Assembly: GCA_903911145.1 (NCBI GenBank)
Contig: CAIWCD010000013.1
Coordinates: forward strand, 186,001-250,000
DNA: 64,000 bases
Origin: an uncultured delta proteobacterium
GTDB lineage: Bacteria > Myxococcota > Myxococcia > Myxococcales > 40CM-4-68-19
Direction: 5' to 3'
Below, piece after piece: positions 48,158-59,813 of this stretch. The position numbers and the translations under genes were made by a program. The notes below the pieces were generated by a model that saw nothing but the letters and a program-made list of their open reading frames with translations, made no database searches and was not told where the DNA came from. Positions within the stretch are counted from its first letter, which is position 1, and each line of letters starts with the position of its first letter.

Positions 48158-48964
48158 CTAACGGCCGGTGAAACTCGCGGGGCGCTTCTCGAGGAATGCG
48201 GAGAGGCCCTCCATCGCATCCTCGGCAAGCGCGTTGATCGACAGTTGCGAGGCGAGCGATTCGAGCGCGGCTTCGTAGGGCATCGATTCGGCGAGGCGAA
48301 ACGCGCGGCGGCCGAGGCGCAGCGTGATTGGACTCTTCGCGCAGAGCAGATCGAGCAGCGTCTGCGTCTGGGCAGCGAGCTCTACGCGTGGCACTGCTCG
48401 CGTAATGAGACCGAGGCTCTGCGCCTCGCCGGCGCTCACTTTGCGGCCCGTCAGAGTGAGATCGAGTGCTGCCCGACGACCGACGCAGCGAAGAATCGGC
48501 GCGAGCGCCATGTACGGGAAGATCCCGACGTCGACCTCGGGCGTGCCGAACTTCGCGTCATCAGCGGCGATGGCGAAGTCGCAAGCGCAGACGAGGCCGA
48601 GCCCTCCGGCCAGCGCGATTCCGTTGACCTGCGCGACGAGTGGCTTGCCCAGCTTGTCGATCTCACCGAGCAGAAGCGCATAGGCGCGCCTCGCCTCGTG
48701 CGCAGCGAGCAGACCCGCCTCGCCCGCAGCCGCCGCTGAGCCAAGATCGGCTCCCGCGCAGAAGGCCTTCTCGCCCGCGCCGGTCAACAGGATCACGCGC
48801 ACTGCCGGATCGGCATCGGCGCGCTGGAGCGCAGCCCGCAAGAGCGCGATGAGCTCGGGCGAGAGCGCGTTGCGCGATGAGGGGCGGTTGAGCGCCAGCG
48901 CACGAACGGCGCCGCGCGACTCTTCGAGGAGAACTGCGGGGATCGTCTCGGTGGCGTCGGACAC
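48158..48964 (-). CDS. Enoyl-CoA hydratase/isomerase family protein
   Basis: A crotonase-fold enzyme of 268 residues. The oxyanion-hole segments are visible as KAFCAGADL and NGIALAGGLGLVCACDFAIA, and the catalytic Glu region as GTPEVDVGIFP. The segment with Tyr/Met instead of the second Glu (PYMALAPILRCVG) is seen in several crotonase branches, so hydratase, isomerase or hydrolase activity cannot be told apart. It ends in KRPASFTGR, the usual family ending. GTG 48964 is the start. It lies upstream of the BKACE gene and so may process the same CoA esters. Confidence 0.9.
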   Translation of the reverse strand: MSDATETIPAVLLEESRGAVRALALNRPSSRNALSPELIALLRAALQRADADPAVRVILLTGAGEKAFCAGADLGSAAAAGEAGLLAAHEARRAYALLLGEIDKLGKPLVAQVNGIALAGGLGLVCACDFAIAADDAKFGTPEVDVGIFPYMALAPILRCVGRRAALDLTLTGRKVSAGEAQSLGLITRAVPRVELAAQTQTLLDLLCAKSPITLRLGRRAFRLAESMPYEAALESLASQLSINALAEDAMEGLSAFLEKRPASFTGR

Positions 48965-49016
48965 GGCGCGGGAGAGTGGCCGCGCGCGCGCTGGGCGTCA
49001 AGCAAACCGTTCTGCC

Positions 49017-51257
49017 ATGACCGCAAGTGCCGTCGCTGCTATTGAACGTGGCTCGATGGACGCACGCACGCAGAGCGCACTCCTCGCCGCTGTCGTCTCG
49101 TTCGCGCTGGCGATCGCGATGCTGCTGCGCCAGGGCCGCACGCGCCTCTGGACTGCATTCGCGCTGCTCAACTTCTCGATCCTCGCCTACGAACTCGGCG
49201 AGTTTCTCCACGGCATCCTGCATGCCGATGGATGGCAGCGGATCACGCTCGGCGCGGCCGGTGTTGTGCCCTCGGCGCTGCTCGCGTTCCTCTTCGAATT
49301 TCAGGGAGAGACCAGCCGCCGAGGCGCGCTGCTCAAACGCCTCGCCTTCGCGACGTCCGCCCTCACGCTGGGCCTCGCCGTCTCGCCGTTCGCTCTCATC
49401 CCGGCCGCGCAGGTCACTGTCGCGAGCGCGGTCTTCGTCCAGCTCACCGCCTCGGTCTCCCTGCTCTACGCGCGCATGCGCCGCGCGCAGAGCCGCACTG
49501 AGCGCGCGCGCCTCTTCTACCTCTGGGTCGGCGCCGCGCTGTGCGTGGGCCTGACGTTCGGCGAGCTGCTCATCAAGATGGCCGGCTGGCCGCCGCCGCC
49601 ATTCGCCAATGTCGCGCTCACCGTCTATCTCTACTTCCTCTCGCAGACGATCCAGCGACACCGCCTGCTCGATCTCAACGAGCTGCTCGGAAAGATCGTG
49701 GTGCTCGCGAGCGTGGGACTTGTGCTCGCAGCGATCTATGGACTGCTCGTGCGATGGACCGGTGGTGCCTCGACGGGACTGTTCCTCTTCAACACGCTCG
49801 TCGCCTCATTCGTGATCCTCATTCTCTTCGAGCCGCTCAAGGCCAAGGTCGAGGAGCGTGTACTCGCTCTCTTCTTCGCCGAGCGGCACCAACTGGTGAT
49901 GGCGCTGCACGCCCTGCGCGCGAAGGCTGCTGCGGTGGTCGACGTGCGGCAGCTCGCGCAGGTCGTGCTCGACGGGCTCTACGAAACCCGGCGCGTGACG
50001 CACGCGTCGCTCTACCTGCTCGCCGATGACGGTCTCGGCTACAAGCGGCTCGATCACCGTGGCCCGGCCCCTGCTCCGTACATCGATCTCGCGACGCTCG
50101 GTGCGCTCGTGCAGAGCGCGCTCGCGGGGCAGAAGGCGCTGCTGGTGGAGCTGATTGAGCGACGCCTCGGAGAGCTGCGGCTGTTACTTCCCGACGAGGT
50201 GCAGTCGCGCCCGCCCGAAGAAGCGAACGCCAACGATCGCCCGCCGGATGCGAATCAGAACTCGGCGCTGGCCGAGGAGCGTGCGCGCCTTTCAGAGATC
50301 GGTGCAGCCATGGCAGCGATGCGCGCAGGCGTCGCGATCCCGCTGATGGCCGGCCAGCGAGTGGTGGGCTTCCTCTGCCTGCTCGACGATCGCGTCGCCG
50401 AGGCCTTCGCTTCGGACGAACTCGCCGCGATGCTCGAGGTCGCCGATCAGGCCGCGCTCACCATTGAGAACAGCCGCCTCTACGAGCGCATGAAGGAGCG
50501 CGATCGCCTCGCCGCACTCGGCGAAATGGCAGCGGGCCTTGCGCACGAGATCCGAAATCCTCTCGGCGCGATCAAAGGCGCCGCGCAGTATCTCGATCCC
50601 AAACAGTTGCCGCCCGGAGACAGCGAGATCCTCGGCATCATCGTCGAAGAGGTGAACCGGCTCGACAGCGTCGTCGCGCAGTTCCTCGACTACTCGCGCC
50701 CGTTCCCCAGCGTCGGCACCAGCGACCGCTTCACACCGACCGATCTCAACGACGTCATCGGGCGCACACTCAAGCTGCTCGAGCCGACGCTGCCCGTCGG
50801 CGTGAAGATCGTGAGCGAGCTCGGTCCGCAGCTCCCGCCCATCCTGGGCGACGCGGAGCAACTCAAGCAGGTCTTCATCAACCTCGCGCTCAACGCCGTG
50901 CAGGCGATGCCCGACGGCGGCACGCTGACGGTGCGGACGCGCAGGCCTGTGCAGCCGCTCGAGATGGCCCTCTCCGATGCGCTTCCGCGCTACGCGGCCG
51001 ATCTTGTCGAGGTCCGCTTCTCCGACACGGGCGCGGGAATCCCCGAGGAGGCGAAGGACCGGATCTTCATCCCGTTCTACACGACGAAGACGAAGGGCAC
51101 GGGCCTCGGACTCGCCATCACCCAGCGGATCGTCAAGGGACACGGCGGAACGATCGAAGTGCAGAGCCGCATCGGCGAGGGCACTGAGTTCGTCCTGCGC
51201 TTCCCAAGCGCGAGCGCACTTGACACCGCGGGCAAATTGGGGTTGGCGCAGAACTGA
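49017..51257 (+). CDS. Membrane histidine kinase with GAF domain
   Basis: A sensor kinase of 746 residues. The N-terminal third has about eight hydrophobic segments and resembles the 7TM-type sensor of HisKA kinases. A GAF domain at about residues 300-490 follows, then a HisKA dimerisation helix with the phospho-acceptor in AAGLAHEIRNPLGAIKG, an N-box (INLALNAVQAM), G1 (FSDTGAGIPEEAKDRIF) and G2 (GTGLGLAI). The kinase core is complete. No response regulator lies beside it. ATG 49017 is used; the in-frame ATG 49056 would begin closer to the first membrane segment and is equally likely. Converges with a HAD gene. Confidence 0.92.
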   Translation: MTASAVAAIERGSMDARTQSALLAAVVSFALAIAMLLRQGRTRLWTAFALLNFSILAYELGEFLHGILHADGWQRITLGAAGVVPSALLAFLFEFQGETSRRGALLKRLAFATSALTLGLAVSPFALIPAAQVTVASAVFVQLTASVSLLYARMRRAQSRTERARLFYLWVGAALCVGLTFGELLIKMAGWPPPPFANVALTVYLYFLSQTIQRHRLLDLNELLGKIVVLASVGLVLAAIYGLLVRWTGGASTGLFLFNTLVASFVILILFEPLKAKVEERVLALFFAERHQLVMALHALRAKAAAVVDVRQLAQVVLDGLYETRRVTHASLYLLADDGLGYKRLDHRGPAPAPYIDLATLGALVQSALAGQKALLVELIERRLGELRLLLPDEVQSRPPEEANANDRPPDANQNSALAEERARLSEIGAAMAAMRAGVAIPLMAGQRVVGFLCLLDDRVAEAFASDELAAMLEVADQAALTIENSRLYERMKERDRLAALGEMAAGLAHEIRNPLGAIKGAAQYLDPKQLPPGDSEILGIIVEEVNRLDSVVAQFLDYSRPFPSVGTSDRFTPTDLNDVIGRTLKLLEPTLPVGVKIVSELGPQLPPILGDAEQLKQVFINLALNAVQAMPDGGTLTVRTRRPVQPLEMALSDALPRYAADLVEVRFSDTGAGIPEEAKDRIFIPFYTTKTKGTGLGLAITQRIVKGHGGTIEVQSRIGEGTEFVLRFPSASALDTAGKLGLAQN

Positions 51258-51272: not shown

Positions 51273-51983
51273 CTACTCGGCGCTGATCACCGACCAACCG
51301 CGAACGGCCGCCTCGGTGGCCAGGGCGTTTCCAGTCGAGGGCGCAACGGCGACCGCCACCCGCGCCGCATTGAGCATCGCCAGGTCGCCCGTGTTCGAGT
51401 CACCACACGAAAGCGCGAGAGGCAGCCACCGCGCCTTCGTGAGCGCCTCGACTTTGCCCTGCGCGTACGTCACTGGCCCCGCAAGCTCAGCCGTCAAAAG
51501 ACCGCCCGGCCCCTCGAGAACAGTCATGCCGAGGCAGCGCTCGACCGGAACTCCCGCGAGAGGAACCGCAGCGCGGACGATCTCGATCGGGCTCGCCGAG
51601 ACGATGCAGGGAACAAGACCGCTCTCTCGGCACAGAGCCAGAAGAGCCTGCGTCGCGGCGATCAGGCGGGGCGCGACCCATTCGCGCGAGAGCTTCTCGG
51701 CTTCGTGGGAAAGGGCCGAGCGGGACAGCCCGGCCTGGAGCTGCGCGGCGTACGCAAATCCCGCAGCGCGATCCACGGCGACGCGCGCCTCGTAGGCCTC
51801 GAAGGGATCGCAGCCGTCGGGAAGACGAATCCACCCGAGCGCACAGAGGTGCTTGAGAAACGCCTCGCCGACATCATCGCGCCAGAGCGTTCCGTCGGCG
51901 TCGAACGCAGCCGCCGCGCCGGGGAGAGCCCGCCCGGCCTCACGAACTGCGGTGATGAGTTGAGGCGGGAGCAGCGTACGCAA
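51273..51983 (-). CDS. HAD-superfamily phosphatase (SerB-like HAD-IB)
   Basis: A 236-residue phosphohydrolase. Motif I is AAFDADGTLW (nucleophile Asp), motif II is CIVSASP, and motif IV is ALSCGDSNTGDLAML. The cap insertion lies between motifs I and II, as in subclass IB, which includes phosphoserine phosphatase and phosphocholine/phosphoethanolamine phosphatases. The substrate is not clear. It starts at TTG 51983 with GGAG 8 nt upstream. It lies 21 nt upstream, in transcription terms downstream, of the HEAT A gene (stop 52005), so it may be read through from the protease/HEAT cluster. Confidence 0.8.
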   Translation of the reverse strand: MRTLLPPQLITAVREAGRALPGAAAAFDADGTLWRDDVGEAFLKHLCALGWIRLPDGCDPFEAYEARVAVDRAAGFAYAAQLQAGLSRSALSHEAEKLSREWVAPRLIAATQALLALCRESGLVPCIVSASPIEIVRAAVPLAGVPVERCLGMTVLEGPGGLLTAELAGPVTYAQGKVEALTKARWLPLALSCGDSNTGDLAMLNAARVAVAVAPSTGNALATEAAVRGWSVISAE

Positions 51984-52004: not shown

Positions 52005-52607
52005 TTACTTGCCGAAGCAAGCGTCCATCGCGGGACCAAACCGGAGGCGCATCTCTTCGTTCGCGGTCTTGACCTGCGTGCGAATCGAAGAGCAGGTCGC
52101 AGGCGCGTGCTTGACCATCACCAGCGCCGCCACCGAACGAACCCGGCTGTCCTTGGCGTTCTTCATCATCGGCGACAGCTGCGCGATCATCTCATTCTCG
52201 GGCAGCAGATAGCCGATGCCGCGAATCGCCGCGTAGCGCACCACGAACGGCTCCTGCTCATTGTTCGCGATCGTCTTGAACAGCTCGACACGGCTCGTCC
52301 CGATCGCGCTGAGACCATCAATCGCCTTCGCACGACGCGTCGGCAGGCTCCCGCCGTTGAGGACCTCGAGCAGAGGAGTCTCGGCGCGAATCCCGAGGGC
52401 CTTCCACTGCGCCAGGCTGATCGACGTGTCGATGCTGCCGAGGAACGCACTCACCTGCCCGCGGATATCGTCGTCCGTCAGGCTCGGGTCCGGCTGCGCG
52501 TCAGCGCTTGGCGCGGGCACGAACGGACGCTTGTGGAGCTGCGGAGCGGCCATGACCGCCGACGAGAGGAGCGCGAGAAGAGAGGCCAAAGCCAAGCGGG
52601 ACATCAT
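52005..52607 (-). CDS. Exported HEAT-repeat protein A
   Basis: A 200-residue secreted protein. A signal peptide (MMSRLALASLLALLSSAVMAA) is followed by Pro-rich sequence and about four HEAT-like helical repeats (FVVRYAAIRGIGYLLPENEM; SRVRSVAALVMVKH). It is a clear paralogue of HEAT B (54883-55455): both have LGSIDT/LGTIDT, W K-LG-RAE, RRAKAIDGLS and end DACF. A single Cys pair (TCSS ... DACFGK) may bond. Function unknown; it directly follows protease A with 36 nt between them. ATG 52607 has GGGAG 7 nt upstream. A chaperone, inhibitor or substrate-recruiting role for the neighbouring protease is only inferred. Confidence 0.8.
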   Translation of the reverse strand: MMSRLALASLLALLSSAVMAAPQLHKRPFVPAPSADAQPDPSLTDDDIRGQVSAFLGSIDTSISLAQWKALGIRAETPLLEVLNGGSLPTRRAKAIDGLSAIGTSRVELFKTIANNEQEPFVVRYAAIRGIGYLLPENEMIAQLSPMMKNAKDSRVRSVAALVMVKHAPATCSSIRTQVKTANEEMRLRFGPAMDACFGK

Positions 52608-52643
52608 ATTGATTCTCCCTGAGTGCAGATTGCGGCGCGACAT

Positions 52644-54800
52644 TTAGTGAACGACCGGGTTGGAGCGAGCAATCTGGCCCTGCTGCTGCGAAACGGTGGC
52701 CTTCGATGCAGCCGGATCGAGCAGCCAGAACATGAGGTAGTCACCGCCACCGCACGCCCCGCTCGTCTTGGTGCACGCCCCTCCCTGCAGCTGCGTCGGG
52801 GAGCCCGAGGGGCAGACACCGACGAACCCGGTCTGCGAGGTCGGATCGTAGCAGCACTTGGCTGCCGTCGCGCCAACGCAGCTGCTCGTGCAGCTGCACT
52901 CCGGCGTGTCGGTGATGGGGTCCCAGTTGCTCCCGACCGCTTCAGTCGTGTGGTAGAGGCCCATCCAGTGGCCACCTTCGTGCGCCGCGATGTAAGCAAC
53001 TTCGTCGGCACCGCAGTTCCAGTTGGGCGCGCCCGTGCAGAGATTCGTGGCCCCGCCCGCAAGATTCGTGGCCGAGATGTCGGCCGCGTTCATCACCGCA
53101 CCCGTGTGCACCGAACCGCTGAACCCCGACGGAGCTGGGATGGCGCCGTCGATGCCCACGACCATTGATCCACCCGTCGGCTCCGCGCCGTTGGCAAGGA
53201 TCGAGTCGACGAAGAAGAAGTTGAGCGTGTTCCCCGCCTGCGCGAGCGTGAACATCTGGTCGAGGCCGTCGCACGCACCGGTGTGAGCCGCATCCACTGC
53301 TCCGGCACCGTTGTTCAACTGGCCCTGCGCGTTGATCGCGCCGCCGTATGCGGCCTTCGCCCAGGCAGGCAGATCGTAGAAGGTCACCGTACCGACGCAG
53401 ATCCCAAGATTCGCGTAGATACCCGCCAGCGTCTTCACGAACCGCTGAACGCTCGTGTTGGCCGGGGCACCCGAGGCAGTGAGATCCGTCGTCGCGAGGT
53501 AGATGGCAATGTCAAGCTTGCCGGTCGCAGAGATGGCCGGCTTCGTCACCACCGAAATGTCGTAGGTGCCAGCGTCGCTTCCACCAGAGCAGCCGATGCC
53601 ATTGGCCGGGTCGGTGTACAGGCCTTCCGCGCACGCATAGGCGTCGTCCGCGAGGGAGAACGACCAGTTGCCAGCCGCGTACCCAGCGGTCGAGTCCTGA
53701 ACTCCCTGCGACGTGTTCGGGATGATGAACGCGCTCGTGACTGCTTCGGGAAGTAGCCCGAGCGTCCCGTACTGCGCGTGATACGTCGTCGTGTCGAGGT
53801 TCGAGCCGCCGTCCGGGAGGTTCGGATAGAAGTTGTTCTCGAACCAGTCGTCTCCCGCCGGAGTCGTCACGGTCGTCGGCAGCACGCCGTTGGTCGTCGG
53901 GCGATTGAGCACGCAATCATGCGAGGTGCTGTTGCAGGTTCCCCCGGCGTTCGTGCACTGGGTCGTGGCGGCCGGCGAGGCGCAAAAACCTGCGAACGTC
54001 TCGATCAGCGTAAAGGTCGGGTTGGCGTTAATCGTTGCGGTGCTCTGCGAGACGATCGAGATCGAGCCCGTTGCCGCAGGGACGTTGAACGTCACCGTGT
54101 CGCCGACCTTCTTCGTGCCGATGTGGTTCACGGTCGTGCCGTTCGCATAGACGGACGAGGCCGGTGCGGCGATGACAGGCGTCTGGCAGGTCGAAGGCTT
54201 CGACGACGGGAAGTTGCCGGTGCCTGCGACGATCGTGGGCGCAGTGCAGACTGCGGGAGATCCGCCACCGGAGCCGCCCGCGCTGCCGCCGCCCGAGCCA
54301 CCCGCGCTGCCGCCGCCCGAGCCACCCGCGCTGCCGCCACCGGAACCACCGCCGCTGCCACCACCTGAACCACCGCCGCTGCTCGTGCAATACCCCGAAG
54401 GCGTGCAGGTGTGCCCGAATCCGGCGCAGCAGACGTAGCCGCTGCGGCAGTCGGCCGCCGTGAGGCAGTCCTCAAGGCAGGCGCTGACAGCCGCGTTCGT
54501 CTGGGTCAGGTCCGCGCACTTCGATCCCGATGGGCAGGCGGACGATCCGCAGGACGAGGAGCAGTAGCCGCTCGGAAATCCCGACGTCGCGACGAGGCAG
54601 CTGAGCGGAGAGGCGCAATCAGCCCTCGACGAGCAGGCCGAACCGAGCGTCCCACTCGCCCCGATCTCGCACGTTCCATTCACGCAGGTTTGGCTCGTGG
54701 GGCACTGCGCGTTCGAGGTGCAGGTGGGGGTGCCGCTGCCGGAACAGGCTGCGGCAAGCAGAGCAGGAAGCAGAATGATGGTCTTGGTGAATGCGCGCAT
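52644..54800 (-). CDS. Secreted metzincin-like metalloprotease A with Cys-rich repeats and Gly-Ser linker
   Basis: A 718-residue lipoprotein (lipobox LLAAAC). After the lipid anchor come cysteine-rich EGF- or Dickkopf-like modules (CTSNAQCPTSQTCVNGTC), a Gly-Ser linker of about 40 residues, a beta-rich domain, and the catalytic domain. The catalytic domain carries HEGGHWMGLYH (codons 52950-52982), the zinc-binding HExxHxxGxxH of metzincins, with the general-base Glu intact. A downstream CGGGDYLMFWLL may supply the Met-turn. It probably cleaves proteins at or beyond the cell surface. Many Cys in the catalytic half suggest disulfides. HEAT A follows on the same strand. Together with copies B and C it forms a tandem family. 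Confidence 0.85.
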   Translation of the reverse strand: MRAFTKTIILLPALLAAACSGSGTPTCTSNAQCPTSQTCVNGTCEIGASGTLGSACSSRADCASPLSCLVATSGFPSGYCSSSCGSSACPSGSKCADLTQTNAAVSACLEDCLTAADCRSGYVCCAGFGHTCTPSGYCTSSGGGSGGGSGGGSGGGSAGGSGGGSAGGSGGGSAGGSGGGSPAVCTAPTIVAGTGNFPSSKPSTCQTPVIAAPASSVYANGTTVNHIGTKKVGDTVTFNVPAATGSISIVSQSTATINANPTFTLIETFAGFCASPAATTQCTNAGGTCNSTSHDCVLNRPTTNGVLPTTVTTPAGDDWFENNFYPNLPDGGSNLDTTTYHAQYGTLGLLPEAVTSAFIIPNTSQGVQDSTAGYAAGNWSFSLADDAYACAEGLYTDPANGIGCSGGSDAGTYDISVVTKPAISATGKLDIAIYLATTDLTASGAPANTSVQRFVKTLAGIYANLGICVGTVTFYDLPAWAKAAYGGAINAQGQLNNGAGAVDAAHTGACDGLDQMFTLAQAGNTLNFFFVDSILANGAEPTGGSMVVGIDGAIPAPSGFSGSVHTGAVMNAADISATNLAGGATNLCTGAPNWNCGADEVAYIAAHEGGHWMGLYHTTEAVGSNWDPITDTPECSCTSSCVGATAAKCCYDPTSQTGFVGVCPSGSPTQLQGGACTKTSGACGGGDYLMFWLLDPAASKATVSQQQGQIARSNPVVH
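54260..54378. repeat. Gly-Ser linker coding repeat in protease A
   Basis: Tandem near-repeats of about 12-15 nt, encoding GGGS and AGGS units on the minus strand. They form the flexible linker between the Cys-rich and catalytic parts. Such repeats can change length by slippage or recombination. Confidence 0.8.
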
Positions 54801-54882
54801 CGTCTCGTCTCTCGAGGCATTGCCCGGCGAACGCTCGCCGAGGAAAAAGCGGGAGGGCTATAGCAGATTTTGATTCGAGCAA

Positions 54883-55455
54883 CTAACGCGCGAAGCAGGC
54901 GTCGACAGCGCGGCCGAACTCGCCCTGGACTTCGCTGGCCTCGCGCGCGACCTGCGCACGAACCAGAGGACACGCCTCGGAGGGGATGCGCTTGGCGAGC
55001 TGCTCTCCAGCGAGCGAACGCACGCTCGCGTTCTGCGACTTCTCAAGCAGCGGACGCAGCGCCGCGAGCAGCGCACCATCGGTCGTCACCCGCGCGAGAC
55101 CACGGATCGCCGCGAGCCGGACGTTGAGCGTCTCGTTCTCATCCGCGGAGATGCGCTCGCAAAGCTGCTTCGCGCTCGGTCCGCCGATGATCGACAACCC
55201 GTCAATCGCCTTGGCCCGCCGCGAGGGCAGCGTCTTTCCGTTGATGATCTCGAGGAGAACCGGCTCGGCACGCACGCCGAGTCGCTTCCAGCGCGTCTGC
55301 TCGATCGGCGTGTCGATGGTGCCCAGGTACGAGCGCACGCTCGACTGGATCTGCTCGACCGTCAGAGTGTTGTCCGGCTCTCCCGACAGCGGTGCAGGCT
55401 GCCCGGAAGTCGCGGAGTGCATTGCAAGAAGTGCACAGAGAAGAAAGGAGGTCAT
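54883..55455 (-). CDS. Exported HEAT-repeat protein B
   Basis: A 190-residue secreted protein with signal peptide MTSFLLCALLAMHSATSG and HEAT-like repeats (VRLAAIRGLARVTTDGALL; SVRSLAGEQLAKRI). It is homologous to HEAT A over its whole length: SSVRSYLGTIDTPIEQTRWKRLGVRAEP..LLEIINGK matches VSAFLGSIDTSISLAQWKALGIRAE..LLEVLNGG. It follows protease B by 30 nt and precedes protease A by 82 nt. The duplicated protease-HEAT unit suggests that each HEAT protein works with its own protease. Confidence 0.8.
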   Translation of the reverse strand: MTSFLLCALLAMHSATSGQPAPLSGEPDNTLTVEQIQSSVRSYLGTIDTPIEQTRWKRLGVRAEPVLLEIINGKTLPSRRAKAIDGLSIIGGPSAKQLCERISADENETLNVRLAAIRGLARVTTDGALLAALRPLLEKSQNASVRSLAGEQLAKRIPSEACPLVRAQVAREASEVQGEFGRAVDACFAR

Positions 55456-55485
55456 GGCTGGCTCCGAGTTGATTCTGCCGTGCGC

Positions 55486-57474
55486 TTATTGGACGACCGG
55501 ATTGGCGCGGATGATCTGGCCCTGCTGCGGAGAGATGTTGCCCACTGCGTTGCTGTCGAGCAGCCAGAACATCAGGTAGTCGCCGCCGCCGCACTTTCCG
55601 CTGGTCGCCGAGTCATCGGTGCACTCGGTGCCCTGAACGTAACCATCGGGGCTGCTTCCCGGAGTTCCGTTGCCCTTGTCGCACGTCGTTGCGCACTGGG
55701 GCGTGTCGGAGACGGGGTCGAACACCGTGCCGTCGGCTTCGGTCGTGTGGTACAGGCCCATGAAGTGGCCGCCTTCGTGTGCCGCGATATAGGCGACCAG
55801 GTCCGCACCGCAATTGTTGAAGTCGATGGCCCCGCTGCACGCGTTTTGCGTCGCGGCGCCATCAACGTCCGTCGCGTTGACAACCGCGCCGCTGTGAATC
55901 GTCCCTGCCGCTGAAGCAGGACCCGGGATCGCACCGTCGATACCGACGATGACGCCGCCGCCGCTGTTGGTGCTGCTCACGAGGTTGTCGACGAAGAAGA
56001 GGTTGATCCCGTCCGACGCGCCAGCAGAGAGCGTGAACATCTGGTCGAGATCGTTGCAGGGACCGGTGCTGTCGATTCCCAGGTTGTGATAGGCGCTCTG
56101 CGCCCAGGCCGGCACGTCGTAGAAAGTCACCTTGTCGAGGCAGAGTCCGGCGCGAGCGTAGACCGTCGCCAGCGTCCTGAGCATGCGAGCGTAACCGGCA
56201 TCCGTGATGGCCTTGGCCGCCGTGTTGGTCGTGCTGACGATGAAGATGTTGAGATTCACCTTGCCCGTCGAGCCAGCGGTCGGCTTGGTCAAGATCGTCA
56301 CGTCGTAGGTCTGTCCCGTCTGCGCTCCAGTCTTGCACTGGCCGCCGAGCGGACCGTTGCCTGCGCACTCCGACGCGAGATCGCTGACGGTGAACGACCA
56401 GAGACCGGGGGCGTATCCTGCCGCCTCGTGCGTCAATCCCTTCGAGGTGTTCGGGAGCGTGAGCGTGGCGTTCTCGGGCTGGCCACCCTCGAGGTAGCCT
56501 TCGAGCGTCGAGAAGTCCGTCACCGACGAGGTGAACTCGTCCGACAGATTGAAATAGTTCGTGCCGCTCGAATCATTCAGCGCGGAGGGGGCGAGAATGT
56601 TGGGGATGGTCAGATCCGCGCCGCCATTCGGGTTGGCGACGGTGACGGAGTCGGACGGACTTGCGCTCGACGCCTGCTGGATGATGCTGATGGTTCCGAT
56701 GTTCGGACGAACAGTGAAATTAACGGTCGAGCCAACCGCAACGTGAGGATAGTGCTCGCGCTCGAAAGTCGGCATGTTCGGGGTCACCACCGGATGCTGG
56801 CAGCTGGCCGGCTTTGATGCGACTCCGAGAGAGCCGCCGTTCACGAGGGTCGGCTGCGTGCAACTGCCCCCCGAGCCACCGCCGCTGCCTCCACCCGACC
56901 CACCAGCGCTGCCGCCACCCGAGCCACCGGCGCTGCCGCCACCGGAGCCGCCCGCGCTGCCGCCCGCGCTGCCGCCACCAGAGCCGCCCGCACTGCCGCC
57001 GCCAGATCCACCGCCCGAACCGTTGCACACGGCCGTGGGAACGCAGGTCTGACCGAAACCCGCGCAGCAGGTGTATCCTCTGCGGCAATCGCTGGGAAAG
57101 TTGCAGCTCTCGGTGCAGGCTTTGCCGATCGAGCCGCCGAGATTGCTGCAGATCGACTGGGACGGGCAGATGTGCCCTGCGCAGCCCTCGGAGCAGTAGC
57201 CGGCCGGAAAACCGCTCGAGGCGAGGATGCAGTCGCCCGAGGCGCAGTTGCTGTTCGACGTGCAGGCCGTGCCGATTGCGCCGCTGCCGCTTCCGCCTCC
57301 GCTGCCACCGCCGGAGCCGCCGCCGTTGCCGAGCGTGCAGACGCCGTTCGAGCAGACCTGGCCGGTCGCGCACTGCGCATTCGACGAGCAGACCGGGACC
57401 CCGTTGCCACTGCTACAGGCGGCGAGGAATAGGCTTACGAGCACCGAACCCAGTTGCCACTGTCGCATCGTCAT
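55486..57474 (-). CDS. Secreted metzincin-like metalloprotease B with Cys-rich repeats and Gly-Ser linker
   Basis: A paralogue of protease A with 662 residues and the same order of parts: lipobox LFLAAC, CSSNAQCATGQVCSNGVC module, a short GGGS run, a second Cys-rich module, the long Gly-Ser linker (56869-57020), a beta domain and the catalytic domain with HEGGHFMGLYH (55747-55779). It shares VTFYDVPAWAQ, VGIDGAIPGP and CGGGDYLMFWLLD with A. ATG 57474 (MTMRQWQ) has GAGG upstream; the longer frame from 57669 is not protein-like. HEAT B follows 30 nt downstream. 212 nt separate it from the end of protease C, enough for its own promoter. Confidence 0.85.
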   Translation of the reverse strand: MTMRQWQLGSVLVSLFLAACSSGNGVPVCSSNAQCATGQVCSNGVCTLGNGGGSGGGSGGGSGSGAIGTACTSNSNCASGDCILASSGFPAGYCSEGCAGHICPSQSICSNLGGSIGKACTESCNFPSDCRRGYTCCAGFGQTCVPTAVCNGSGGGSGGGSAGGSGGGSAGGSAGGSGGGSAGGSGGGSAGGSGGGSGGGSGGSCTQPTLVNGGSLGVASKPASCQHPVVTPNMPTFEREHYPHVAVGSTVNFTVRPNIGTISIIQQASSASPSDSVTVANPNGGADLTIPNILAPSALNDSSGTNYFNLSDEFTSSVTDFSTLEGYLEGGQPENATLTLPNTSKGLTHEAAGYAPGLWSFTVSDLASECAGNGPLGGQCKTGAQTGQTYDVTILTKPTAGSTGKVNLNIFIVSTTNTAAKAITDAGYARMLRTLATVYARAGLCLDKVTFYDVPAWAQSAYHNLGIDSTGPCNDLDQMFTLSAGASDGINLFFVDNLVSSTNSGGGVIVGIDGAIPGPASAAGTIHSGAVVNATDVDGAATQNACSGAIDFNNCGADLVAYIAAHEGGHFMGLYHTTEADGTVFDPVSDTPQCATTCDKGNGTPGSSPDGYVQGTECTDDSATSGKCGGGDYLMFWLLDSNAVGNISPQQGQIIRANPVVQ
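56869..57020. repeat. Gly-Ser linker coding repeat in protease B
   Basis: A tandem array of short units encoding GGGS, AGGS and related motifs, longer than the one in protease A. A shorter run of the same type lies at 57290-57325 near the N-terminus of the gene. Confidence 0.8.
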
Positions 57475-57686
57475 CTTGGGACCTCGTCGCAGCGCTGCCT
57501 GAACTTCGAGTTGCCGGTCGTACCAGACGTCAAGCAAACGACGCTCGGTCAAGCGACCGAGGCCCGCCAGTGCACCGGTGGGACACCGACCGACATTTCC
57601 TCGAGTGAAAGTCGTCAATTCGCGAGTCACCGTTTCGAACATCGCGAGCGCGGGGTCACGCGCATACACGCCATCTCGAACGAGTT

Positions 57687-59813
57687 CTATTGTGCGAGGA
57701 GATTGCTGCGCATGACTGCTCCCTGCTGTGCAGAGAGTTTGCCCTGCGAGAGGCTCGGGTCGAGGAACCAGAACATCAGATCATCTCCGCCGCCGCAGGT
57801 TGTGCCGCCCGCGAGGCAGTCTCTCGCCTCGACGTAGGTGGGGTTCGAGCTTGCGCCGCACGCGGCTTTCCGCGCGCCGGTGGTGCAGTCGGTACAACTG
57901 CAGGTCGACGTGTCGGAGAGCGGGTCGTAGAAGTCTCCTGTCGCTTCGGTCGTGTGGTAGAGGCCCATCCAGTGGCCGCCCTCGTGCGCGGCGATGTAAG
58001 CCACGAGGTCTGCGCCGCAGTGCTGGAGATCGATCCCGCCTGAACAACTGCCGGCGTTCAGATCTGCCGCGCTCACCGCCGCCCCGCTATGAATCGTGCC
58101 GCCCAACGTGGACGGGCCTGGGATGGTTCCGTCAAGGCCGACCACACTTCCGCCCGCGCTCGTCGAACTGATCTGCTCGACGAGGAAATAGTTGAGTGTG
58201 TTGCCCGCGCGCGCGAGCGTGAACATCTGGCTCAGGTCGTCACAGGGGCCGAGTTTGTCCGCGCTGATGCCGGTCGCGTATCGGGCCTGCGCCCACGCCG
58301 GGACGTCGTAGAATGTGACCGTTCCGAGGCAAAGACCGGCCTGGGCGTAGAGCGCCGCGAGAGTCGTGAGCATCCGCTGGACGTGCGAACTGCTCGCGGC
58401 GTTTGCCGCCGTGAGGCCCTGAGCGCCGACGAGATAGAACGCGATGTCAAGAGTCGCACTGCTCGCCGGCGCGCCGCGCTTGACGAGGACGCTCACGTCG
58501 TAGAGTCCATCGGACGAGCCGCCGTCGCAGTTGTTGGTGTTGAGGCACTCGGCTGCGTAGTCGTTGACAAGGAACAACCAGGTGCCGGCAGGCAGGCCAC
58601 CATCAGAAAATACGAGTCCGGCGGTCGTATTTGGAAACGTCATCACGCCCGTCGCTGGAGAGTCGGTCTGGTAGTAGACGGGCACGGTCGAGAGATCAGT
58701 CGGAAGCGCTGCGCTGTCGTTGTAGATCACCGTGCCGCTCGGCGTCGTGAGCTGCGTCGGGACGACCGTGTTGTCGAGAGGGCGGCCCTGGTAGCTGATC
58801 GACGCTCGTGCGCTGATCGCCTGCGAGATGATGCTGATCGACGCCGCTTGCGCGGGGACCTGAAACTGCACCTTGTCCCCGACCGTGCGTGCGCCAAAAC
58901 GCTGCACCATCTCTGCGGGGAGAGTGCTCGCCGCGACCGGTTCGATGCAGAACGGCGGCGCGCTGGCCGGGCCTGCTGTGCCTCCCGAGACGAGCAGCGG
59001 AGTCGCGCCAGAACCGCATGCCCTCTGGCCGATCACCTGTGTTGTGCAAACAAAGGTCGTGCCCGTAGGAGCCGCGCAGCCGTAGCCCGTGCGACAGGAC
59101 GCGGCGGTCTGACAGGTCGGCAGGCAGAGCGGTCCCTGATCCGTGATGACGCACTGGCCGTTCGAGGGGCAGGTCGTCGCGTCGCTCATCGAGCAGGCGC
59201 GCGTGCAGGCACCACCGGGGAAATCAGCTCCGAAGCGGCAATGCTCGCCGCTCGCGCAGCTTCCCGGAGTGCAGGCCGCGCCGAGGCCAGCGCTCGCGCT
59301 CGAGGAGAGGCCGGCAGCGGGACAGAGTGACGACGGAAGGCACGCGCCGCCCAGCGTCGCGCACGCGGCCCAGCCTTCGCGGCAGGCGCCGCCGTCGCCG
59401 ATGGTCGGAACGCAGATCTGCGCGTTCACGGGCGTCGCGCGCAGGTCTGCGCAGATCGTGTTCGATGGACACGAACCTGTCGCGCACGACTGCGCGCAGA
59501 GTCCGCCAGAGAGACCAGTCCCATCAAGCGCGCAAAAGAGGTCGCTCTCGCACTGCGCAGAGGAGTAGCAAGACGCCCCGACGGTCTGCACGGGACCCGC
59601 GTCGACGGTCTCGCAGGTGCCGAGTCGGCAGACCTCACCGACGTTGCACTGGGTGTCGGAGTTGCAGAGTTCGGGCGCCTGGCAAATCCCTGCGCGGCAG
59701 ACTTCGCCGAGCGTGCACTGGCTATCGGCGCTGCAGAAGCGGCTGCTCTTGTGGCAGGCAGGAACTGCGACAGAGAGAATCGCAGCGAACGCGGAGAGTC
59801 GGGAGAGGGTCAC
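57687..59813 (-). CDS. Secreted metzincin-like metalloprotease C with extended Cys-rich region
   Basis: The third paralogue, 708 residues. The lipoprotein signal ends VPACHKSS. It lacks the Gly-Ser linker and instead has more Cys-rich modules (CSADSQCTLGEVC, CNSDTQCNVGEVC, CYSSAQCESDLFC and others up to residue 270). The catalytic domain follows, with HEGGHWMGLYH (57954-57986), VTFYDVPAWAQ and CGGGDDLMFWFLD conserved. It starts at GTG 59813. No HEAT gene follows; protease B is next, 212 nt on. This may be the founder or the most diverged copy. Confidence 0.85.
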   Translation of the reverse strand: MTLSRLSAFAAILSVAVPACHKSSRFCSADSQCTLGEVCRAGICQAPELCNSDTQCNVGEVCRLGTCETVDAGPVQTVGASCYSSAQCESDLFCALDGTGLSGGLCAQSCATGSCPSNTICADLRATPVNAQICVPTIGDGGACREGWAACATLGGACLPSSLCPAAGLSSSASAGLGAACTPGSCASGEHCRFGADFPGGACTRACSMSDATTCPSNGQCVITDQGPLCLPTCQTAASCRTGYGCAAPTGTTFVCTTQVIGQRACGSGATPLLVSGGTAGPASAPPFCIEPVAASTLPAEMVQRFGARTVGDKVQFQVPAQAASISIISQAISARASISYQGRPLDNTVVPTQLTTPSGTVIYNDSAALPTDLSTVPVYYQTDSPATGVMTFPNTTAGLVFSDGGLPAGTWLFLVNDYAAECLNTNNCDGGSSDGLYDVSVLVKRGAPASSATLDIAFYLVGAQGLTAANAASSSHVQRMLTTLAALYAQAGLCLGTVTFYDVPAWAQARYATGISADKLGPCDDLSQMFTLARAGNTLNYFLVEQISSTSAGGSVVGLDGTIPGPSTLGGTIHSGAAVSAADLNAGSCSGGIDLQHCGADLVAYIAAHEGGHWMGLYHTTEATGDFYDPLSDTSTCSCTDCTTGARKAACGASSNPTYVEARDCLAGGTTCGGGDDLMFWFLDPSLSQGKLSAQQGAVMRSNLLAQ

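What the first reader, a model, noticed from the sequence alone, without database searches (positions are those of the whole stretch)
52005..59813. Tandem cassettes of secreted metzincin-like proteases with dedicated HEAT-repeat partners
Three paralogous lipoproteins of about 660-720 residues, each with HEGGHxMGLYH, a shared VTFYDxPAWA motif, and a CGGGDxLMFW segment, lie in a row on one strand. Copies B and A are each followed within 36 nt by a paralogous exported HEAT-repeat protein, so a protease-plus-HEAT unit was duplicated. Known metzincin operons do not, to my knowledge, carry such a HEAT partner; an inhibitor, chaperone or substrate-presenting role is plausible. A predatory or developmental role at the cell surface is possible.
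Basis: partly seen in the sequence, partly recalled or inferred. Interest (0 to 1): 0.75.

Follow-up and report, generated by a model that had tools for sequence, protein, structure and literature searches.

The report
Leptolysin-like protease with paired HEAT protein
A myxobacterium-like genome carries three exported zinc proteases in a row, and two of them (like about 60% of their relatives in several bacterial phyla) are followed directly by a small exported helical-repeat protein that structure prediction docks onto the protease, which suggests a widespread and so far undescribed protein that restrains or escorts this family of enzymes.

Summary
Three paralogous lipoprotein metzincins (A, B, C) lie in a row with HEGGHxMGLYH, VTFYDxPAWA and CGGGDxLMFW. 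B and A are followed after 30 and 36 nt by paralogous exported HEAT proteins. The proteases are leptolysin-like members of the pappalysin (M43) branch: 63 of 67 relatives match the leptolysin model, and ulilysin is the closest solved sequence. The pairing is general. In 195 genomes of the phylum, 44 of 53 HEAT hits in protease-bearing genomes lie beside a protease, all on the same strand. It recurs in Bradymonadales, SAR324, Magnetococcales and Bdellovibrionota, with the HEAT gene 3' or, in one branch, 5'. Protease and HEAT trees share 17 of 45 splits (chance 0.17). AlphaFold2 of two natural in-frame read-through pairs, from distant lineages and in opposite order, gives pTM 0.87 and 0.89, where a free-floating HEAT domain would give about 0.69 and 0.64. 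The HEAT protein therefore most likely binds its protease. I favour a periplasmic inhibitor, as with BamI or the potempins; a folding or secretion escort is the main rival. About 38% of proteases lack the partner, and Myxococcaceae keep an orphan HEAT relative. No paper found describes the pair. Predation or development is untested.

The parts
57687..59813 (-). Protease C: lipoprotein with Cys-rich N-terminal repeats, leptolysin-like metzincin domain at the C-terminus; no HEAT partner of its own
   Evidence: NF047970 E 1.7e-16 over 472-706; sister of the unpaired protease of G008
55486..57474 (-). Protease B: lipoprotein, Cys-rich module, GGS linker, beta-rich N-terminal domain, leptolysin-like metzincin domain
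   Evidence: AF2; Foldseek best: PAPP-A; leptolysin E 2e-15
54883..55455 (-). HEAT-B: exported HEAT-repeat partner, 190 aa, 30 nt after protease B and in the same frame
   Evidence: (AF2 read-through model, pTM 0.87)
52644..54800 (-). Protease A: as B
   Evidence: (leptolysin profile hit on A at 5.2e-6)
52005..52607 (-). HEAT-A: exported HEAT-repeat partner, 200 aa, 36 nt after protease A
52950..52982 (-). Extended zinc-binding motif HEGGHWMGLYH of protease A (B: 55747-55779, C: 57954-57986)
   Evidence: zinc ligands and Glu invariant in A8
52725..52754 (-). Met-turn segment CGGGDYLMFW of protease A (B: 55564-55593, C: 57768-57797)
   Evidence: corresponds to leptolysin NLMF Met-turn (PMC9445424)
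52905..52922 (-). DPxxDT motif of protease A (B: 55702-55719, C: 57909-57926), matching the calcium-site D...T of pappalysins
   Evidence: leptolysin 416D/421T in PMC9445424
51273..51983 (-). HAD-family hydrolase 21 nt after HEAT-A; neighbour conserved in the window's own family only, probably not part of the module

Best explanation
This is a two-gene module: an exported, lipid-anchored, leptolysin-like pappalysin protease, and a small exported HEAT-repeat protein, probably made from the same transcript, that binds it. Most likely the HEAT protein is a dedicated inhibitor. It holds the freshly exported enzyme silent in the periplasm and releases it (by dissociation, by degradation, or by staying behind) once the protease reaches the outer membrane or the outside. 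In the window the unit B+HEAT-B / A+HEAT-A has been duplicated beside an older unpaired copy, C. Shown: paralogy, family, gene pairing, co-inheritance. Predicted: physical docking. Inferred: co-transcription, inhibition, place of action and trigger of release.
For: Family: 63/67 relatives match NF047970 leptolysin, the profile's best solved match is ulilysin, E 2e-10, and the folds are metzincin plus HEAT. Pairing: 44/53 HEAT hits in protease genomes adjacent, 44/44 same strand, usual gap 0-61 nt; 50 of 51 HEAT-bearing loci among 80 have the HEAT gene against the protease; in 20 whole genomes, excluding the seed loci, 11/16 strong HEAT hits adjacent against 0/16 weak ones. Pairing survives different neighbourhoods and both gene orders. 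Trees share 17/45 splits, Mantel r 0.71, 0 of 5000 permutations. Docking: pTM 0.87 for B+HEAT-B and 0.89 for a distant pair in reverse order, against about 0.69 and 0.64 expected if the HEAT domain floated. Inhibitor over foldase: leptolysin is active without any partner once refolded and shows no self-processing (PMC9445424); BamI, from the gene next to mep72, binds that metzincin and relieves its toxicity (PMC4334185); potempins precede and inhibit KLIKK proteases (PMC7296668), which include the pappalysin mirolysin; 26/69 proteases do without the partner, easier for an inhibitor than an obligate foldase.
Against: No activity data. pTM is not an interface score, and no negative-control fusion was run. 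Recombinant leptolysin formed inclusion bodies and needed pressure refolding (PMC9445424), which would also suit a foldase. Orphan HEAT relatives persist in Myxococcaceae without the protease, so the wider HEAT family has some other role there.
Confidence: 0.5

Rival explanations
1. The HEAT protein is a dedicated periplasmic folding or secretion chaperone (like CpaB for CpaA or Lif for LipA): it binds the protease and is needed for it to fold or to cross the outer membrane.
For: Same anatomy as cpaA-cpaB, where the adjacent partner is required for secretion of a metallopeptidase (PMC4713064); leptolysin expressed alone formed inclusion bodies; pairing and docking evidence.
Against: About 38% of proteases have no HEAT neighbour and no recurrent substitute; known T2SS chaperones are membrane-anchored, whereas these have cleavable signal peptides or lipoboxes.
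Confidence: 0.27
2. The HEAT protein is a permanent subunit that sets substrate choice or tethers the enzyme (adaptor or exosite).
For: HEAT solenoids are common protein-binding scaffolds; the closest solved sequences include artificial alphaRep binders; docking predicted.
Against: No conserved third component; no fusion of the two in 80 loci, which would be expected sometimes for a permanent subunit.
Confidence: 0.14
3. Passive neighbours: the genes are co-inherited but the proteins do not touch.
For: Part of the synteny in the window's own family is general (HAD and histidine kinase conserved too).
Against: Pairing kept in other neighbourhoods, in other phyla, in both orders, and in repeated units within one genome; two confident docked models.
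Confidence: 0.06

Closest known systems
Leptolysin (Leptospira, NF047970; M43B pappalysin)
   Same: Same catalytic family: HExxHxxGxxH, NLMF/xLMFW Met-turn, D..DT calcium motif; the model aligns over the whole C-terminal 235 aa
   Different: About 60 bits against a 950-bit equivalog cut-off; different N-terminal half (Cys-rich repeats, GGS linker, lipobox); whether leptolysin has a HEAT neighbour could not be checked here
Ulilysin / mirolysin (pappalysins)
   Same: Metzincin fold and motifs; profile E 2e-10 and 6e-7
   Different: Zymogens with an N-terminal pro-segment that is cut off (PMC6949598 abstract; PMC9445424); mirolysin has a potempin, not a HEAT partner
Potempins with KLIKK proteases (Tannerella forsythia)
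   Same: Small exported protein encoded next to a secreted protease and specific for it (PMC7296668; PMC4404884)
   Different: Potempins precede the protease, are lipoproteins, share no significant similarity with each other and are not HEAT proteins as far as known; the proteases carry a KLIKK C-terminus
Mep72-BamI and AprA-AprI (Pseudomonas)
   Same: Metzincin with adjacent exported binder; BamI binds Mep72 and relieves its toxicity (PMC4334185)
   Different: Other protease family and, from general knowledge, a beta-barrel inhibitor, not HEAT
CpaA-CpaB (Acinetobacter)
   Same: Metallopeptidase with adjacent dedicated partner (PMC4713064)
   Different: CpaB is a membrane-anchored SRPBCC-like chaperone
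PopC-PopD (Myxococcus xanthus)
   Same: Myxobacterial secreted protease held by a partner (PMC6434023)
   Different: PopC is a subtilisin-like protease and PopD is not a HEAT protein (general knowledge)

Membership tests
Metzincin clan | HExxHxxGxxH zinc motif | tested here: met
   All three copies; invariant H, E, H, G, H in 67 relatives
Metzincin clan | Met-turn downstream | tested here: met
   xLMFW in all three, matching leptolysin NLMF; invariant M in A8
Metzincin clan | Fold of catalytic domain | tested here: met
   Foldseek: PAPP-A, ADAMs, snake metzincins, fragilysin; ulilysin
Pappalysins (M43) | Sequence relation to M43 members | tested here: met
   42/67 relatives match Peptidase_M43 at E<=1e-3; ulilysin best solved match
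Pappalysins (M43) | Pfam PF05572 gathering score | tested here: not met
   Of the three window proteases only B is listed, 16.1 bits against 23
Pappalysins (M43) | Cysteine-switch or autolytic pro-segment | not tested
   Many cysteines; no coordinates to inspect
Leptolysin (NF047970 equivalog) | Curated cut-off 950 bits | tested here: not met
   About 60 bits: same branch, not leptolysin itself
HEAT-repeat proteins (PF13646) | Gathering score of HEAT_2 | tested here: met
   35.3 and 36.1 bits against 27.7; 37 of 46 relatives match
KLIKK/potempin systems | KLIKK C-terminus on the protease | tested here: not met
   Proteases end NPVVH, NPVVQ, NLLAQ
KLIKK/potempin systems | Partner inhibits the neighbouring protease | not testable with these tools
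   Needs an activity assay
T2SS membrane chaperones (CpaB/LipB) | Uncleaved N-terminal membrane anchor on partner | tested here: inconclusive
   By a heuristic, cleavable signal peptides or lipoboxes in most recognisable cases (24 and 6 of 51); no dedicated program run

The most novel reading that the evidence does not exclude
A cross-phylum family of natural HEAT-repeat proteins that act as dedicated inhibitors of pappalysin-type metzincins, co-inherited with their target as a two-gene module.
Probability: 0.42. Interest if true: 0.75.

Novelty: new variant of a known kind. Interest (0 to 1): 0.6.

Why it matters
Protease plus adjacent dedicated binder is a known design, but a HEAT-repeat partner for a pappalysin-type metzincin appears undescribed, at least in the held library: no paper there joins 'leptolysin' or 'pappalysin' with 'HEAT repeat'. 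If the partner inhibits, it is a new inhibitor fold for the enzyme class that includes leptolysin and human PAPP-A, and it gives a simple way to find which of many unannotated secreted metzincins are kept under control and how. The in-frame gene pairs and repeated units (four proteases, each beside a HEAT gene, in Lujinxingia vulgaris) make specificity tests easy.

Tried and rejected
HEAT partner as local accident: rejected. Missing HEAT of protease C hidden in the C-B gap: 212 nt, no HEAT hit. Single-sequence search of solved structures with protease A: dominated by matches to the GGS linker, uninformative; the profile search worked. Replacement partner in HEAT-less loci: none recurrent overall; downstream genes are unrelated, e.g. 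LpxK-like, SDR, aldo-keto reductase. Protease-HEAT fusions: none in 80 loci. Promoters and terminators: no more than chance. A HEAT-A + HAD in-frame fusion as a negative control was considered, but it has a linker of only about eight residues and only two HAD relatives among the usable loci; the second fold job went to a distant, reversed pair instead. One row of A6 and A7 (L119 HEAT) was cut in the wrong frame; it was left out of the tree comparison. Leptospira genomes could not be reached, so leptolysin's own neighbour is unknown.

Full report
WHAT IS THERE. On the - strand, in transcription order, lie protease C (57687-59813), protease B (55486-57474), HEAT-B (54883-55455), protease A (52644-54800) and HEAT-A (52005-52607). 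The three proteases share the extended zinc motif, the VTFYDxPAWA segment, a DPxxDT motif and the CGGGDxLMFW segment. A and B have a lipobox, a Cys-rich module, a (GGS)n linker, a beta-rich domain and a C-terminal metzincin domain. C has more Cys-rich repeats in place of the linker, and a weaker lipobox. The genome (G000, 5.3 Mb, 99% complete) has exactly three such proteases and two such HEAT proteins.

FAMILY. Pfam gives only sub-threshold metzincin hits. NCBIfam leptolysin NF047970 matches C with E 1.7e-16 over its last 235 residues and all three copies in a six-frame search. Of 67 relatives, 63 match leptolysin and 42 match Peptidase_M43 at E<=1e-3. A profile of the family finds ulilysin (2e-10) and mirolysin (6e-7) first among solved structures. 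Foldseek of the models gives PAPP-A, ADAM/adamalysin, fragilysin and ulilysin. The Met-turn of leptolysin is NLMF (PMC9445424), which corresponds to xLMFW here. The enzymes therefore belong to the leptolysin-like branch of the pappalysins. They are not leptolysin itself, since the 950-bit equivalog cut-off is far from met.

THE PARTNER. HEAT-A and HEAT-B pass the Pfam HEAT_2 threshold. Homologues keep five invariant and ten nearly invariant columns in a 29-sequence alignment of the order. Export signals are visible in most cases whose start can be recognised: 24 ordinary signal peptides, 6 lipoboxes, 21 not recognised (a heuristic; some HEAT entries include out-of-frame sequence). For the proteases the same heuristic found lipoboxes in 71 of 85.

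HOW GENERAL IS THE PAIRING. In the window's order (145 genomes), protease hits occur in 39 genomes and HEAT hits in 25, and the HEAT gene lies directly 3' of a protease in nearly all complete loci, including weaker cases first missed. In the window's own family a HAD hydrolase and a histidine kinase are also kept nearby; in the Anaeromyxobacter-type family they are not, yet the pair stays together. A scan of one genome per species found 80 loci in Myxococcota, Bradymonadales-type bacteria, SAR324, Magnetococcales and other Pseudomonadota, Bdellovibrionota (Oligoflexia), Planctomycetota, Nitrospirota and Nitrospinota. 51 of them carry a HEAT hit, and in 50 of those it lies against the protease on the same strand; in the Nitrospirota and Nitrospinota loci and most Planctomycetota loci no adjacent HEAT was found. 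In the phylum survey (195 genomes) there were 69 protease and 134 HEAT hits; in protease-bearing genomes 44 of 53 HEAT hits are adjacent, all 44 on the same strand, and 43 of 69 proteases have such a neighbour. As a test outside the seeded loci, the whole genomes behind 20 of them were searched: leaving the seed loci out, 11 of 16 strong HEAT hits lie beside a further protease copy, while 0 of 16 weak (generic) HEAT hits do. Lujinxingia vulgaris has four proteases, each beside a HEAT gene.

GENE ORDER AND HISTORY. Most HEAT genes are 3' of the protease; one branch and a few others have them 5' (the order label needs 3 changes on the protease tree). The presence of the partner is clustered on the tree but needs 13 changes, so it has been lost or gained repeatedly. 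Trees of the two proteins built from 48 pairs share 17 of 45 splits (mean 0.17 when shuffled, at most 1), and the distances correlate with r 0.71 (0 of 5000 permutations as high), also for groups that mix phyla. Vertical descent contributes to this; together with adjacency it says that the two genes travel as a unit. Within the window, proteases A and B are sisters (93/78), C is sister to the unpaired upstream protease of the sister genome (97/95), and HEAT-A and HEAT-B are sisters (unresolved in the smaller set). So a protease+HEAT unit did duplicate, beside an older unpaired copy. In G009 a fragment of a second protease and a HEAT copy with stops lie together, as if a unit had decayed as a whole.

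PHYSICAL CONTACT (PREDICTED). B and HEAT-B are in the same reading frame, so the DNA read through the stop gives a natural single chain. AlphaFold2 on it gave mean pLDDT 87.5 and pTM 0.87, with a disordered linker of about 30-40 residues. A second pair from a distant lineage with the opposite gene order (L157, HEAT first) gave pLDDT 91.0 and pTM 0.89 with a 24-residue disordered linker. If the HEAT domain floated freely the pTM would be about 0.69 and 0.64; the observed values need an inter-domain error of a few angstroms or less.

FUNCTION. Three roles fit a small exported binder made with an exported protease: inhibitor, escort or chaperone, and permanent subunit. I favour inhibitor. Leptolysin works without any partner after refolding and showed no self-processing (PMC9445424), so outside control would be useful. 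Many family members lack the partner (26 of 69), which is easier for an inhibitor than for an obligate foldase. The closest functional parallels are inhibitors or detoxifiers: BamI (PMC4334185) and potempins (PMC7296668). Against this, leptolysin fell into inclusion bodies, and CpaA-CpaB shows the chaperone option with the same gene layout (PMC4713064). The HEAT family also has a life of its own: nearly every Myxococcaceae genome keeps a relative without any such protease, mostly in a separate part of the tree.

KNOWN OR NEW. The enzyme is a new member of a known branch; the design (protease plus adjacent dedicated binder) is known; the HEAT fold as partner of a pappalysin-type metzincin, and its spread over phyla, I found nowhere in the held papers. 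The library is incomplete, so this is not proof of absence. Hence 'new variant of a known kind', interest 0.6. Predation or development was not tested.

Noticed in passing
window 54370-54700 (N-terminal part of protease A); L004 (G000:C32:4923-5315): The Cys-rich N-terminal module of protease A is 70% identical to that of a lipoprotein elsewhere in the genome whose C-terminus is unrelated and carries a CxxCH haem-type motif; about a dozen further lipoproteins share such modules or the GGS linker with other C-terminal domains. It looks like an exchangeable display module.
   Followed up: partly
L201-L214 (Myxococcaceae genomes): Nearly every Myxococcaceae genome keeps one orphan HEAT relative without a leptolysin-like protease, usually between a HAD-like phosphatase gene (MRPTVLLFDIDGTL) and a divergent lipoprotein gene with a VWA-like VDKSGSM motif.
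   Followed up: partly
window 51273-51983 and 48849-51257; L082, L084, L086, L091, L093, L094, L110, L111: A HAD hydrolase and a convergent histidine kinase are conserved next to the pair in the window's family only.
   Followed up: no
L084 6440-6924: A decayed protease+HEAT unit (protease fragment and HEAT with two stops) lies just upstream of an intact unit in G009.
   Followed up: no
genomes G195 (L159), G200 (L150), G201 (L172), G214 (L187): Several genomes hold 4-6 leptolysin-like proteases, some paired and some tandem without partner; in Lujinxingia vulgaris all four lie beside a HEAT gene.
   Followed up: partly
L128, L135, L141 (Nitrospirota and Nitrospinota): HEAT-less leptolysin-like proteases sit upstream of an LpxK-like gene in all three, a different conserved neighbourhood.
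   Followed up: no
L184: A record titled Klebsiella pneumoniae (MAG LH-05nov19-24) carries a pair that clusters with environmental MAGs of other groups; probably a mislabelled bin.
   Followed up: no
L099 and L100 (G086): One genome has the protease and its HEAT relative on different contigs, neither beside the other; the HEAT gene follows a metallophosphatase-like gene.
   Followed up: no
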